Shown one piece after another: positions 9,798 through 18,115 of a stretch of DNA of 64,000 bases. The stretch comes from a bacterium (GTDB lineage: Bacteria > Hinthialibacterota > Hinthialibacteria > OLB16). The position numbers and the translations under genes are program-made. Under the pieces are notes generated by a model. It saw only the letters and a list, made by a program, of their open reading frames with translations, searched no databases and was not told the DNA's origin. The DNA lies in the NCBI GenBank assembly GCA_022072055.1, contig JAJVIK010000015.1:62001-126000 (forward strand). The letters run 5' to 3'. Every line of letters starts with the position of its first letter. Positions within the stretch are counted from its first letter, which is position 1.

Positions 9798-10379
9798 ATG
9801 AAAACCGGTCGAATCCTTTACCCAGCTTGGCTTGACCTGCGAAATGCTCCGGTCCTGGTAGTCGGGGCGGGCCGAGTTGCGCTGCGAAGAACCACCGCCC
9901 TTCTCGAGGCCGAAGCCGCTGTTCGGGTGGTTTCCCCGCGGCGCCTGCCGGAATTCAAGAGCTGGATCACAAGCGGCAAGGTCGAATGGATCAACCGGGA
10001 GTTTCAGGATTCGGATGTCGAATCGGCTCGGCTCGCGCTGGCCTGCACCAACGATCCGGAGGTGAATCGCTCCGTGGTCCGGGCGGCAAGGTCCCACGGC
10101 GTCTGGGTGAGCAGCTGCACAGTCGAAGAAGAAACCGATCTTTATCCCTCGGCTTTTCTGAGAAGAGGCATCCTCGGGATCTCGGTCACCTCTTCGGCGG
10201 CCGCTCCCATCCTCTCGCGAGTCCTCCGGGACTGCCTGGCCGAGATCTTCGCGGACGACTGGTCGAGTGCGGCCGAGGAGATCGCGCGGGGAAGGGGCGC
10301 GGGCATGGACACGGTGGAGGCGCGAGTGCGCGCGGAGTTTGGACGATCCGTCGCGCGCTGGCTCGGCTCTACCCCTTAA
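9798..10379 (+). CDS. Precorrin-2 dehydrogenase (siroheme synthase N-terminal type)
   Basis: An NAD-dependent enzyme of the CysG N-terminal/Met8 family, which oxidises precorrin-2 to sirohydrochlorin and often also inserts iron. It opens with YPAWLDLRNAPVLVVGAGRVALRR, the dinucleotide-binding motif with the family's basic residues, then ALACTNDPEVNRSVVRAA and the FLRRGILGISVTSSAAAPIL segment that contributes to the active site. Length 193 residues is complete for the dehydrogenase unit, with no methyltransferase fusion. Its end overlaps the convergent permease gene by 11 bases. No other tetrapyrrole gene is adjacent, so whether it serves siroheme or heme is unresolved. Confidence 0.88.
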   Translation: MKTGRILYPAWLDLRNAPVLVVGAGRVALRRTTALLEAEAAVRVVSPRRLPEFKSWITSGKVEWINREFQDSDVESARLALACTNDPEVNRSVVRAARSHGVWVSSCTVEEETDLYPSAFLRRGILGISVTSSAAAPILSRVLRDCLAEIFADDWSSAAEEIARGRGAGMDTVEARVRAEFGRSVARWLGSTP

Positions 10380-12000
10380 GCCCGGTGAGGGTCACTCCCT
10401 GGATGAAGTAACGCTGGGTGAAGAAAAACAGGAAGATAATCGGAAAGGTCATCATGGATGCCGCCGCCATCAGCTCCGCCCATTGTCCCCCCTGCGCTTG
10501 GGTCTGTCGGAAGATGAAAAGCCCCACGGACATCGGAGTCTTGTCCTCATCCGTGATGTAGATCAGAGGCTGGAGAAACTCGTTCCATGTGTTCTGGAAC
10601 TGGAAGATGGCGATGGCGGCCAGCGCGGGCTTCACCAGCGGCAGCAGGATCCGCCAATAGATCGTGAAGTATCCGCACCCGTCAATCTTGGCGGCGTCTG
10701 TCAGATCCTGTGGGATTCCCATGTAGAACTGGCGCATCAAGAAGATGAAGAAAGGGGCGCCGGTGAAGGACATGATCGTGAGCGGAAAGAGGGTGTTGTA
10801 CATCCCAAGCTTCGAGAACAGCACAAACTGCGGGACCATGGTCACCTGGGGCGGAAGCATCATCGTGGCGAGCATGAGAACAAACAGCAGGTCCCTTCCG
10901 GGGAAGCTCAGTCGCGCGAACGCGAATCCCACCAGGGAGCAGGCCAGGAGCTGGCCGAGGATGTTCCAGAAGGTGATCTTGACCGTAACCCACGTGTAGG
11001 TTGCGTATGGGACCCAGCGAAAGACCTCCTGACAATTCTCCGTGAGGCGCTCCCAGACCACGCGCCAGTAGGGGGTGGGAAGCAGATAGAGGATCATCCG
11101 CGCCATGTGGTCGGGGAGATCGTTCCTCAGGTTCGGGTCCGGGGTGAGGGTCAGGTGCTCGACCTCATATTTCCGCTGTGGATTGAAAGTCCAGAACACA
11201 TCCTGGTACTCCCCAAGACTGAGCAAGGTTGGGGCTTCGGTGCGATAGCCGGACCCCCGATAGAGCAGAGTCGCGGAGAGCCGATGGTACGAGGCATCCC
11301 CCTTGATCCGGACCATGATCTGCTCAAGTTTTTCCGAGGGTGAAACAATCCCGATGTCGGCTCTAGCGATTTCCACGGGCTGTTCCGAACCGCGAATGGT
11401 GTAGGGGACCTTTCGTCCCATCGATCCCTCGCCCCGTCCGATGTCCCTGGCCGATGCGTTTCGGAAGTAAAAGCCCCCGATCTCGATTCCCCGGTAAACC
11501 CGGAGCCAGGCCTTGGCGACATCCTCCTGAGTGATGCGTTCGACAAAGAGGCGAGCGGCCTCCGGCCCGGCCCAGTCCCCCTCGGGAACCCGATTGTGGA
11601 CCGCCATCCACAGGAAATCCTCAATATCCTTGCGCGCCTTGGTGAAGAACGCGGGCTCCTCGGGCCCGCGCGCCTGGGGCCAGCTCGGATCGGTGAATAG
11701 GGTTTTGGCCCTTGTCCAGGTCTCCTCTCGGAGCTGCCTGACAAAGCCATCCCAGTCACGGCTCTCGGGGAATGTCGAGGGGCGCCGCCAGCGCGGCGGA
11801 TGCGCCTCGACATCCAGGTAAGGGGAATGCCTCACCCGGTTTGGAATCTCCGGGAACCACACCATGGGATCATGAATGATCTCATCGTCCGCCTTCATCG
11901 AGGTTGAGAGCATCCAAAGGAATGGGAGCGAAAAGACCAGCGACAGAAATGCCAATAGCCCATGATGGAGGAGCGTGACAGAACGGCGGTTCGCGCTCAT
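10369..12000 (-). CDS. ABC sugar transporter permease (MalG type) with large exposed insertion
   Basis: The C-terminal 220 residues are a standard binding-protein-dependent permease: five spans and the EAA loop around residues 437-455 (AAKIDGCGYFTIYWRILLP), which docks the ATPase. The N-terminal span is at residues 12-32. Between it and the next span (about 335-360) lies about 270 residues predicted outside the membrane, so the protein is 543 residues against 270-300 for MalG. The insertion is not one I recognise; it has strands such as IEIGGFYFRNASARD that could form a beta-sandwich. It overlaps the upstream fusion gene by 4 bases. No ATPase gene is adjacent; a shared MsmX/UgpC-type subunit is likely. 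Confidence 0.9.
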   Translation of the reverse strand: MSANRRSVTLLHHGLLAFLSLVFSLPFLWMLSTSMKADDEIIHDPMVWFPEIPNRVRHSPYLDVEAHPPRWRRPSTFPESRDWDGFVRQLREETWTRAKTLFTDPSWPQARGPEEPAFFTKARKDIEDFLWMAVHNRVPEGDWAGPEAARLFVERITQEDVAKAWLRVYRGIEIGGFYFRNASARDIGRGEGSMGRKVPYTIRGSEQPVEIARADIGIVSPSEKLEQIMVRIKGDASYHRLSATLLYRGSGYRTEAPTLLSLGEYQDVFWTFNPQRKYEVEHLTLTPDPNLRNDLPDHMARMILYLLPTPYWRVVWERLTENCQEVFRWVPYATYTWVTVKITFWNILGQLLACSLVGFAFARLSFPGRDLLFVLMLATMMLPPQVTMVPQFVLFSKLGMYNTLFPLTIMSFTGAPFFIFLMRQFYMGIPQDLTDAAKIDGCGYFTIYWRILLPLVKPALAAIAIFQFQNTWNEFLQPLIYITDEDKTPMSVGLFIFRQTQAQGGQWAELMAAASMMTFPIIFLFFFTQRYFIQGVTLTGLKG

Positions 12001-14486
12001 GGCTCGCCCCCCTCATAGTGAACCCAGTTGCGCGAGGAGCGGAGCTGAATCACCGTGAGGATCAGCGTGATGACCAGGAGAATCCAGGCCATCGCGGAGG
12101 CGATCCCCATTCGGAACCAAAAGAAAGCGTTGTTGAACAGATAGTAGGCATAGAACAAGGTGGCGTTCGCCGGACCCCCATAGGTCATCACCATCGCCTG
12201 AGTGAAGATCTGCAAAATGCCGATGGTGCTCATGATCAGGTTGTAAAGGAGATACGGGGTGAGGAGGGGGAGCGTGATCGAAAAAAGCTTTCGGAAGAAC
12301 CCGGCGCCATCGATCTCGGCGGACTCGTAGTAGTGCCGTCCGATGCCCTTAAGCCCCGCCAGCCACACAATCATGCTCCCGCCGGCGCCCCAGGCCAGCA
12401 TCAGGATGATCGCGGGCTTGGCGGTCTCCTGCCCCGCAAGCCAATCCGGCCCCTCAAAGGGCAGGAGCGCTTCCAGGCAGACATTGAGGAGGCCGCTCTC
12501 CGGCTTGAGCATGAAGAACCACAGCACCGAGCTCGCGACAAAGGGGACAATCGAGGGGAGATAGAAGAGAGTCCGGTAGGTGGCCATCCCACGGACTTCC
12601 TGCTGAAGGAGGAGCGCGATTCCCAGCCCCACCGCCAAAGTGAGCGGAATCGAGAGCATCATGAAGACCGTGTTGGCCATCGATTTCCAGAACAGCGGAT
12701 CGTTCGCGGTCCATTTCCAGTTCCAGGGGAGCCAGGAGGTCACCTCAACCTGAATCCCCACGAGCTCGGTGTAATTCCGAAATCCGACCCAACTCGGGGG
12801 GTGAAGGACATCGTACCGGGTGAACGACAAGAACAGCGAGGCCAGGATCGGCCCGGCCATAAATACAATGAAACCGACCAGCCAAGGCGAGATGAACAAG
12901 TAGCCCCAGGCCATCTCCTCGCGGCCCGCGGCGCCCTTCGGGCCATGAACTTTCAGATAGGCCAGAAACGCCAGGAACAGCGCAATCCCCAACGCGACGG
13001 CCACCCCATACGGCGCACGGGGATCGATGGGGGGATTGGCCTCCGCCAAGCGGTCCAGCTCGGCGTTTACCTCGGCGCTGTAACGGTCCAGGATCTCCTT
13101 GGGCTCGGCGTTTCCGAAGGCGGCCTGATCCAGCGCGTCCACCTGTTTGTTCCAAAGGAACTGTCCCACGGGGGTGACCGGTCTGAAGCGGGCGTTCGGG
13201 AGCATGTCATAGAACTTGCGCAGCTCGGTCTTCAGATTCGTGGGGATGTCCGGGTCATCCTGGATGACATCGTCAAAGACCCGCTCGTTGGCGATCCGAT
13301 TGGCGCTCATCTTCGGGATCGCGATGCGCCCCTTGCTGCGGTTGTAGTCGCGCTGGTGACGGCATGAGAGGAAGTAGGCCTCGGGCGAGCTCATCCATTT
13401 GATGAAATCCCAGGCGAGCTCGATCTTGTCCTCGCGCACCCCGCGCGGAATCACCAGCGCGAATCCGCCCGACCAGGTAATCGGCTGCTTGTCCGCGGGG
13501 TAGGGAACCGGAATCACCCCGAAGCGAAACTCGGGCTTGTAGCGCGCGATGACCGTGATGAACCCATCCACGTCAATCCAGAGACTGTTGAGTCCCTCCA
13601 GGAAAGGTTGATTGATTCCCCCTTGAAAGGATTGCGCGAAGCGCGCCGCGACCTGTTTCCCCTCGATCCGGTCTTTCCCGTTCTTGGAGTAGTCGGCGTA
13701 AATTCCGCACATGTACTCCAAGGCCGCGAGGACTCTTGGATCGTTCAGCGTGCATCGGTTTCGGACGAGGTCCATGAACTCCCCGCCCATCTGCCAGCCG
13801 TACATGTAGAGGAAGCAGTTCCCCTGGTCCGGCAGGTATCCCACCGAGGTGAGGTTCCCACGGCTATCGCGGCGCAGCAGCAGACGGTTGTGGGTTTTCA
13901 TCTCCTCCCAGGTGAGCGGGGGACGCGGCTTGCCTTGGTCATCGAACAGCTTCCAATCCGGGTGGCCCGCGGCCGCCTCGATCAGGTCCTTGTTCCAGAA
14001 CATCAGGCGGCAATCGGTGTCGGCGGGGACCGCGTAGACCTTGTCCATATACTCCCCCTCCAGCCAGCAGGCGGGGTAGTAGTGAGAGGCGGTGACCGCG
14101 TGCGGCGCGCCCGCCTTCCAATCGCGTTCGATCAAGTCATCCAGGGGCAGAAAGGCGTCTCGCGCCGCCCACCCCCCGATGGTGAAACGATCCTGGAGCA
14201 CCACCTCCGGGGGATCGCCACCCGCGATGGAGCAGAGCAACTTCTGGTCCTGCGGATTGTAATGCGTAAGACCGGTGATGCGGGTGATCCGCACCTGGAC
14301 CCCGGGGTGAGTCCTCTCAAACTCCGCGACCGCCGCGAGCTTCCCCGGCATCTCCTCGGGCAGCCAGCTGTACCAGACGCGCAGGACTGTCTCTCCCGAG
14401 GCGGGGCCGCACGCCGCAAGGGCGGTCACAAGCGCGGCAAGGAGGGCAATCGGCAGCGGTCGCGGGTTCGTTCCAGGCATGAGCAT
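11997..14486 (-). CDS. Solute-binding protein fused to ABC permease (MalF type)
   Basis: One polypeptide of 829 residues joins two usually separate importer parts. Residues 1-26 look like a lipoprotein signal (hydrophobic run ending LAAC, Cys26). Residues about 32-485 are an extracellular family-1 type sugar-binding protein (LRVWYSWLPEEMPGKLAAV, GGDPPEVVLQD, WEEMKTHNRLLLR, FIKWMSSPEAYFLSCR). A span near 493-513 then leads into a MalF-like permease (YLFISPWLVGFIVFMAGPIL, RTLFYLPSIVPFVASSVLW) with EAA loop SAEIDGAGFFRKLFSITLP. The binding domain is thus tethered to the channel twice. The partner permease overlaps by 4 bases. Substrate is not deducible; the family fold suggests an oligosaccharide or polyol. 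Confidence 0.92.
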   Translation of the reverse strand: MLMPGTNPRPLPIALLAALVTALAACGPASGETVLRVWYSWLPEEMPGKLAAVAEFERTHPGVQVRITRITGLTHYNPQDQKLLCSIAGGDPPEVVLQDRFTIGGWAARDAFLPLDDLIERDWKAGAPHAVTASHYYPACWLEGEYMDKVYAVPADTDCRLMFWNKDLIEAAAGHPDWKLFDDQGKPRPPLTWEEMKTHNRLLLRRDSRGNLTSVGYLPDQGNCFLYMYGWQMGGEFMDLVRNRCTLNDPRVLAALEYMCGIYADYSKNGKDRIEGKQVAARFAQSFQGGINQPFLEGLNSLWIDVDGFITVIARYKPEFRFGVIPVPYPADKQPITWSGGFALVIPRGVREDKIELAWDFIKWMSSPEAYFLSCRHQRDYNRSKGRIAIPKMSANRIANERVFDDVIQDDPDIPTNLKTELRKFYDMLPNARFRPVTPVGQFLWNKQVDALDQAAFGNAEPKEILDRYSAEVNAELDRLAEANPPIDPRAPYGVAVALGIALFLAFLAYLKVHGPKGAAGREEMAWGYLFISPWLVGFIVFMAGPILASLFLSFTRYDVLHPPSWVGFRNYTELVGIQVEVTSWLPWNWKWTANDPLFWKSMANTVFMMLSIPLTLAVGLGIALLLQQEVRGMATYRTLFYLPSIVPFVASSVLWFFMLKPESGLLNVCLEALLPFEGPDWLAGQETAKPAIILMLAWGAGGSMIVWLAGLKGIGRHYYESAEIDGAGFFRKLFSITLPLLTPYLLYNLIMSTIGILQIFTQAMVMTYGGPANATLFYAYYLFNNAFFWFRMGIASAMAWILLVITLILTVIQLRSSRNWVHYEGGEP

Positions 14487-17433: not shown

Positions 17434-17739
17434 ATGTTGACAACCGACCACAAGGAATCAATCAAGCGCAGACTCGTGTCCTGCCTCCAGGGTGAACCGG
17501 AGATCAAGAAGATTGTTGTTTTTGGGTCGTTCCTCGAAAGACCTGATCCAAACGACCTGGATGTCGCCGTCTTCCAGGACAGTTCGGAGACCTATCTCCC
17601 ATTGGCCCTGAAATACAGGCAACGAATCCGCGCGGTGACCCGGGAAATTCCAGTCGACATCTTCCCTATCCGACCCGGCGCAAAGGGAGGACTGTTGCTG
17701 GCGGAAATCGAGCGGGGGGAAGTTCTCTATGAAGGATGA
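17434..17739 (+). CDS. MNT-type nucleotidyltransferase (antitoxin of MNT/HEPN pair)
   Basis: A 101-residue minimal nucleotidyltransferase. The catalytic motif is present: GSF at 31-33 followed by DLD at 41-43, the GSx-DxD signature of the pol-beta fold, with VDIFPIRP as a possible third acidic strand. In MntA/HepT systems this protein adds AMP to the HEPN toxin and silences it. The gene overlaps the next by 11 bases, the usual MNT-HEPN arrangement. Such pairs can be defence or stability modules; here it opens an accessory island that also holds integron remains. An alternative is a housekeeping adenylyltransferase, less likely given the partner. Confidence 0.88.
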   Translation: MLTTDHKESIKRRLVSCLQGEPEIKKIVVFGSFLERPDPNDLDVAVFQDSSETYLPLALKYRQRIRAVTREIPVDIFPIRPGAKGGLLLAEIERGEVLYEG

Positions 17740-18115
17740 GGTCCGGGTGTGGCTGACCTATGCTGAAGAGAACCTTCACTCCGCCGAAATCCTACTTGAG
17801 AGCGGTCTCCTGAATCCATCCCTCCAGAATTCACAGCAATCAATTGAGAAGAACCTTAAGGCGCTCCTCTTGGCCTTCGACCTTCCGCTTAAGAGGATCC
17901 ACGGCATCGAAGACCTCTGTCGGATTCTTGAAAAGAAGGGAGTTCAGATTGACCTGACCGTGGAGGAAAGGGAGCTTCTTGATTCGGTATATCTTCCCTC
18001 CAAGTATCCCACTTTCAGTGTGCTCCCAGATTTCATACCTGATACAGAAATCTGCATGGCTTGTCTCAATCTGGCTCGGAAAGTACAGAGACAAACCACC
18101 CAAATCCTGAAATGA
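17729..18115 (+). CDS. HEPN-domain protein (toxin of MNT/HEPN pair)
   Basis: A 128-residue, four-helix HEPN protein. Helix 1 reads WLTYAEENLHSAEILLES, helix 2 NPSLQNSQQSIEKNLKALLL, and the loop KRIHGIEDL corresponds to the R-x-H motif of this HEPN subfamily (Arg56, His58). HEPN toxins are RNases, often cleaving tRNA or being controlled by AMPylation from the MNT partner. The C-terminal region ends QRQTTQILK. Length matches the family. It is translated from the same message as the nucleotidyltransferase. Confidence 0.87.
   Translation: MKDEVRVWLTYAEENLHSAEILLESGLLNPSLQNSQQSIEKNLKALLLAFDLPLKRIHGIEDLCRILEKKGVQIDLTVEERELLDSVYLPSKYPTFSVLPDFIPDTEICMACLNLARKVQRQTTQILK

What the first reader, a model, noticed from the sequence alone, without database searches (positions are those of the whole stretch)
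11997..14486. Binding protein and permease in one chain
The lipobox, sugar-binding domain, linker span and MalF-like permease are continuous with no stop. Binding-protein fusions are well described for amino acid importers, less so for carbohydrate ABC systems. Tethering would raise local substrate delivery and fix stoichiometry at one binding domain per channel.
Basis: partly seen in the sequence, partly recalled or inferred. Interest (0 to 1): 0.65.

Follow-up and report, generated by a model that had tools for sequence, protein, structure and literature searches.

The report
Sugar-binding domain tethered to its permease
This bacterium makes the sugar-catching part and one half of the membrane channel of a sugar importer as one protein chain; the arrangement is real and common in several little-studied bacterial groups, and the partner channel protein often carries an extra outside domain that may help grip the tethered catcher.

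Summary
ORF 11997-14486(-) is one 829-aa chain: signal peptide, sugar-binding domain, one added membrane span, MalF-type permease. It is no sequencing artefact: the junction is continuous in relatives of three families of its phylum, and at least 141 of 291 Armatimonadota genomes match over nearly the whole chain (39-50% identity). Other SBP-MalF fusions occur in Omnitrophota, Planctomycetota and, as a second type, in this same genome. The permease tree needs about five changes; one origin is weakly rejected (p-AU 0.033). A natural MalE-MalF fusion is already in print (Licht 2019, seen only as a citation), so the kind is known; its spread and companions look new. The lipobox is real here but optional (9 of 50 fusions against 45 of 61 separate binding proteins); the linker span is constant (50 of 50). 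The overlapping partner gene, MalG (10369-12000), carries a ~290-aa domain in its P1 loop, homologous to Armatimonadota inserts; Omnitrophota fusions have a CBM30-like domain there. Large P1 loops accompany 26 of 38 fusions against 8 of 110 separate systems, but not demonstrably after correction for descent. The likely ATPase is an orphan MalK. Most likely an ordinary CUT1 oligosaccharide importer with a tethered receptor; substrate unknown.

The parts
11997..14486 (-). fused gene: sugar-binding domain + linker span + MalF-type permease, 829 aa
   Evidence: open frame; Pfam SBP_bac_1 and BPD_transp_1; AlphaFold2 model
14409..14486 (-). signal peptide with lipobox LAAC, residues 1-26; optional in the family
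   Evidence: sequence; hydropathy 8-31; lipobox survey
13044..14390 (-). substrate-binding domain, residues about 33-481
   Evidence: Pfam; model; best solved match 4r9f mannobiose-binding CpMnBP1 by sequence (7.1e-27) and by fold (4.2e-22)
12948..13019 (-). linker membrane span, residues 490-513
   Evidence: helix in the model; hydropathy 2.37; a span in this gap in 50 of 50 distinct fusions
12027..12932 (-). permease core with EAA loop (ESAEIDGAG, residues 721-729), residues about 519-820
   Evidence: Pfam; UgpA and MalF NCBIfam matches below their cut-offs; model; conserved columns
10369..12000 (-). partner MalG-type permease, 543 aa; its ATG overlaps the fusion's stop codon (ATGA)
   Evidence: fold match to E. 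coli MalG 2r6g_G Z 21.6, rmsd 3.1, 261 aligned
11041..11892 (-). extra periplasmic domain in the MalG P1 loop (between membrane spans 1 and 2), residues about 37-320
   Evidence: loop 293-294 aa against a usual 22-39; homologous inserts in G001, G002 and Armatimonadota; no Pfam or convincing PDB sequence match

Best explanation
It is a CUT1-type (maltose-transporter-like) oligosaccharide importer whose receptor is built into the MalF subunit. Shown by sequence and model: the chain has a signal peptide, a two-lobed sugar-binding domain, one added membrane span, and then the permease, whose own N-terminus must lie inside; a second gene with ATGA overlap supplies MalG. Inferred: MalEF and MalG form one channel with one built-in receptor, driven by a shared MalK-type ATPase encoded elsewhere; the tether replaces the lipid anchor that keeps separate binding proteins near the membrane; the receptor closes on sugar, docks on its own channel, opens and rebinds without leaving. 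The extra domain in the MalG P1 loop sits where E. coli MalE touches MalG and where, on the other half of the channel, E. coli MalF has its P2 clamp, so it may steady the tethered receptor or, where CBM-like, hold glycan near it.
For: Domain order and frame. Constant linker span, 50 of 50, with nearly constant spacing (36-44 residues, with few exceptions) in the window's clade. Lipobox in 9 of 50 fused against 45 of 61 separate binding proteins, and 9 of 10 separate ones from the window's phylum. EAA loops kept in both permeases. Nearest solved binding protein was solved with mannobiose and mannotriose. OB_MalK in 6 of the 7 phylum genomes that have matches to the fusion and in 0 of the 7 without. 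GH127, ThuA, xylose-isomerase-like and Gfo/Idh/MocA genes beside some relatives. In E. coli, MalE interacts with MalF-P2 and MalG-P1 (title of Daus 2007 in the references of PMC3150292). P1 enlarged in 26 of 38 fused against 8 of 110 separate systems.
Against: No function was measured. No sugar gene was recognised beside the window's own system. G013's and G063's fusions have no MalG beside them, so the pairing is not universal. The P1 association does not survive correction for descent: 4 independent pairs, in which P1 mostly does not differ. Fused systems without a large P1 exist (12 of 38), so it is not required. G013 has no OB_MalK match. The insert's model is low confidence (pLDDT mostly under 50 between residues 169 and 293).
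Confidence: 0.72

Rival explanations
1. Same importer, but the fusion is a neutral swap of anchors: it works no better and no differently than a lipid-anchored receptor, and the MalG P1 domain is an unrelated lineage trait.
For: Fused and separate systems occur side by side in one genome; 12 of 38 fusions lack a large P1 and 8 of 110 separate systems have one; lipobox kept in 9 of 50; independent pairs give no support for a link.
Against: About five changes on the tree, one origin weakly rejected, and long retention across a phylum hint at benefit; domains without detectable homology fill the same MalG loop in different fused clades.
Confidence: 0.35
2. A sensor rather than a nutrient importer: the fused receptor-permease reports sugar to the cell, or is regulated through MalK, with little flux.
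For: No catabolic gene recognised beside it in the window; fusions without a neighbouring MalG in G013 and G063.
Against: EAA loops and both permeases intact; sugar-metabolism genes beside several relatives; no signalling domain in either protein.
Confidence: 0.08
3. Assembly or sequencing error has erased a stop between two genes.
For: Separate binding-protein and permease paralogues exist in the same genome, one pair in the same frame split by a single stop.
Against: Genomes of three families of the phylum and at least 141 of 291 Armatimonadota genomes show matches over nearly the whole chain; an added span is kept in all 50 distinct fusions read.
Confidence: 0.005

Closest known systems
Natural MalE-MalF fusion of Licht et al. 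2019 (Res Microbiol 170:1-12; Bdellovibrio, organism recalled)
   Same: One solute-binding domain fused to MalF in a CUT1 maltose-type importer; PMC7756565 states MalE fused to MalF is transport-competent.
   Different: Paper not held, so domain order, linker and MalG could not be compared; here other phyla, about five tree changes, and a large MalG P1 domain.
E. coli MalEFGK2 (2r6g and relatives)
   Same: MalF and MalG relatives, EAA loops, MalK-type ATPase in the genome.
   Different: Receptor built in; no P2-sized loop in the fused MalF (about 45 residues between core spans 1 and 2); large domain in MalG P1 instead.
GlnPQ and OpuA, importers with fused binding domains (recalled)
   Same: Binding domain covalently tied to the membrane subunit.
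   Different: Amino acid or betaine families; no such binding-domain family matched here; the fused permease here needs an added span (topology of the others recalled).
CBM30 (Pfam PF21582; 1wmx, 2c24)
   Same: Domain in the MalG P1 loop of the Omnitrophota fused systems.
   Different: Not the domain in the window's MalG, which matches no Pfam family and does not align with the Omnitrophota inserts (probability 0.3%).

Membership tests
CUT1 carbohydrate ABC importers | Family-1 type sugar-binding domain | tested here: met
   SBP_bac_1 5.5e-22; closest solved chains are oligosaccharide-binding proteins
CUT1 carbohydrate ABC importers | Two MalF/MalG-type permeases with EAA loops | tested here: met
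   BPD_transp_1 in both; NCBIfam MalF/UgpA and MalG/UgpE matches, all below their equivalog cut-offs; E. coli MalG fold Z 21.6; EAA loops read from the translations
CUT1 carbohydrate ABC importers | MalK-type ATPase with OB domain | tested here: inconclusive
   One above cut-off in the genome, on another contig, and one just below (26.3 against 27 bits); pairing untested
CUT1 carbohydrate ABC importers | Transports a sugar | not testable with these tools
   no assay
Natural MalE-MalF fusions (Licht 2019) | Single binding domain fused to MalF | tested here: met
Natural MalE-MalF fusions (Licht 2019) | Homology and same domain order as the published protein | not tested
   paper not held; the Bdellovibrio record asked for is not in the collections
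GlnPQ/OpuA-type fused importers | Amino acid or betaine binding-domain family | tested here: not met
   Pfam reports only SBP_bac_1, SBP_bac_8 and BPD_transp_1
CBM30 for the window's MalG insert | Match to the Pfam model | tested here: not met
   0 families for the window insert at E 1; none of 10 inserts matches CBM30

The most novel reading that the evidence does not exclude
In fused MalEF importers the receptor clamp has changed sides: E. coli MalF holds its receptor with the P2 domain between its first two core spans, whereas here MalF carries the receptor itself and the pseudo-symmetric loop of MalG (P1) carries the clamp. Different clades filled that loop with domains that show no homology to each other: a ~300-aa domain without a known family in the window's phylum and Armatimonadota, a CBM30-like domain in Omnitrophota, which may also hold the glycan at the channel mouth.
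Probability: 0.3. Interest if true: 0.7.

Novelty: new variant of a known kind. Interest (0 to 1): 0.5.

Why it matters
How receptor excess and free diffusion shape ABC import is an open matter; phyla where the same transporter family exists both fused and separate, even within one genome, allow a natural comparison. The MalG P1 domains offer a possible second way to hold a receptor on its channel, and the Omnitrophota case a possible link between glycan binding and import. For annotation: in Armatimonadota genomes a count of binding-protein genes that does not allow for fusions will miss receptors.

Tried and rejected
Sequencing or assembly error: rejected. Lipobox as a defining feature: rejected. 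Large MalG P1 as a strict companion of fusion: 26 of 38 against 8 of 110, Fisher p 3e-13 uncorrected, but 4 independent pairs give no support. In that count L009 was called fused by hand (its frame holds the C-lobe and is cut by the contig end), L010's loop was set to about 300 by hand because the hydropathy rule missed its first span, L199 (half of a fusion broken by frame in G458) counted as separate, named duplicate loci were dropped, and systems without a MalG core within about 1.8 kb were left out. Homology of the window's insert with the CBM30-like insert: not found (probability 0.3%). Known family for the window's insert: no Pfam match for the window's copy, PDB sequence matches only at E 0.25 and weaker; the fold comparison tested mainly the membrane core, so a known fold is not excluded. 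The open_frame_aa column of the genome search merged frames across a stop for L003 and L020, so fusions in the fetched loci were re-read. In one search L009 was labelled separate; corrected. One search's first lipobox figure (1 of 14 fused rows, one of them a cut copy; 55 of 84 separate rows) was superseded; the row L034 is the N-terminally cut copy of L035, in which one search found no lipobox; the rule is strict and misses L166 and L167, whose N-termini look lipobox-like by eye. The AU test used 77 thinned rows of 148, long branches dropped; p 0.033 is weak.

Literature: searches gave in their listings no paper describing these fusions in Armatimonadota, Omnitrophota or Planctomycetota or a carbohydrate-binding domain in a MalG loop; only listings and the passages named in the report were read, so this is no proof of absence.
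Full report
What is there. The frame at 11997-14486 on the minus strand encodes 829 residues without a stop. Pfam finds SBP_bac_1 at 46-370 and BPD_transp_1 at 627-816. AlphaFold2, with 58 aligned rows from the window and named loci, gives mean pLDDT 88.5 and pTM 0.85: a signal helix 11-25, a lobed domain to 481, a helix 490-513, then the permease helices from 519. Hydropathy agrees: spans at 8-31, 489-516, 525-557 and onward. Lysines and an arginine follow the linker span, as expected for a cytoplasmic turn. The added span has a simple reason: the binding domain is outside, and a MalF-type permease core starts inside.

Is it real. In the phylum of the window, 14 genomes are held; 7 match at 1e-20. 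Full-length fused homologues are in G002, G010, G011, G012 and G013, and in G001 the C-lobe, linker span and permease are in one frame of 452 aa cut by the contig end. A search of 291 genomes of the phylum of L092 gave 201 with a match at 1e-70; of the 150 rows listed, from 142 genomes, all but one (cut by a contig end) run over nearly the whole chain, so at least 141 of 291 genomes have such a match, two of these rows with one internal stop. Of the 30 loci fetched from that search, 29 gave one fused frame by my rule; the one left out has a TAG inside. In Omnitrophota 10 of 285 genomes match the L066 fusion at 1e-80, one of them broken by frame; in Planctomycetota 11 of 246 match the L050 fusion at 1e-90 (these were not re-read frame by frame).

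How often it arose. On a tree of 120 permease domains the window's fusions and L092 form a supported clade (99). On 148 rows the fused label needs 5 changes: the window-Armatimonadota clade, L012 and L013, the Planctomycetota locus L050, the Omnitrophota clade, and a second type that includes L007 of the window's own genome, L023 and an Armatimonadota locus (L151). On 77 thinned rows one origin is rejected with p-AU 0.033, which is weak.

Anchors. One rule applied to all: a lipobox in 9 of 50 distinct fusions and in 45 of 61 separate binding proteins, 9 of 10 for separate ones from the window's phylum (Fisher p 4e-9, not corrected for descent). A membrane span between the two domains is in 50 of 50. 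The polypeptide tether seems to free the N-terminus from being the anchor.

The partner. MalG (10369-12000) starts within the fusion's stop codon (ATGA). Its loop between spans 1 and 2 is about 294 residues, where 22-39 is usual. The same insert is in G001 and G002 and in Armatimonadota (L159, L160, L163, L164, L166, L167, L170). Others have about 95-155 residues there (L092, L168, L169, L173, L175, L176, L178, L188), and the Omnitrophota systems 130-187, in which Pfam sees CBM30 in 6 of 7 inserts at E up to 1 (best 3.4e-8) and the profile finds the solved chains 1wmx and 2c24 at 3.4e-6 (that these are CBM30 is recalled). The window's own insert matches no Pfam family. Counting systems whose MalG lies next to MalF, 26 of 38 fused and 8 of 110 separate ones have a loop of 80 or more, but this may be mostly shared descent: four independent pairs, and P1 does not differ in most.

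Why the position matters. In E. coli, MalF-P2 spans residues 91-271 and contacts MalE (passages of PMC3150292), and a title in its reference list (Daus 2007) says MalE interacts with loop P2 of MalF and loop P1 of MalG. That P2 lies between the first two core spans of MalF, and so matches MalG P1 by the pseudo-twofold axis, is recalled. The fused MalF has only about 45 residues there. Hence the clamp reading, which is inference.

Energy and substrate. OB_MalK is found in 6 of 14 phylum genomes, all of them among the 7 with matches to the fusion. In the window's genome one copy is above cut-off, a 402-aa ABC ATPase whose neighbours do not look like transport genes, and one is just below. Several MalF-like permeases in the genome would have to share it. 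The best solved relatives are 4r9f and 4r9g, with mannobiose or mannotriose bound, at about 22% identity, too far to name the sugar. Relatives lie beside Gfo/Idh/MocA (G001, G221, G230), GH127 and ThuA (G242), and xylose-isomerase-like (G209) genes; for some others none was recognised.

What is known. PMC7756565 (passages) states that MalE fused to MalF is transport-competent, citing Licht 2019, whose title names a transporter with a single MalE domain fused to MalF; PMC9045158 (passages) notes binding proteins fused to permeases in general. The paper itself was not held. PMC4072686 (passages) counts 28 substrate-binding against 68 permease proteins in Fimbriimonas ginsengisoli and does not contain the word 'fused'. 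So the kind is known; its spread, the several gains, and the MalG domain are, as far as my searches show, not described.

Noticed in passing
L007 (G000:C7:100766-104761), frame 1-2508, and L023 (G002): A second, different SBP-MalF fusion in the window's own genome, with a longer helical linker region and an ordinary MalG.
   Followed up: partly
L003 1440-1500 and L015 930-1000: Binding protein and permease genes in the same frame, split by one stop codon and a few bases before the permease ATG, in two genera: tight coupling, or a place to look for stop read-through.
   Followed up: no
L133 (G013:C522) and L213 (G063:C1): Fusion genes with no MalG beside them; in L213 the next gene is a phage-integrase-type recombinase. 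A homodimeric channel or a distant MalG is possible.
   Followed up: no
L066 7259-7816, L095 7370-7927, L190-L193, L197: CBM30-like domain inside the MalG P1 loop of Omnitrophota systems: a possible glycan-binding module within an ABC permease subunit.
   Followed up: partly
L108, L146, L093, L002/L014/L018, L051: Separate (unfused) systems in Chloroflexota, Hydrogenedentota and the window's phylum with MalG P1 loops of about 80-150 residues.
   Followed up: partly
window 17434-18115: Small nucleotidyltransferase-like and HEPN-like ORFs side by side, resembling an MNT-HEPN toxin-antitoxin pair (from reading alone).
   Followed up: no
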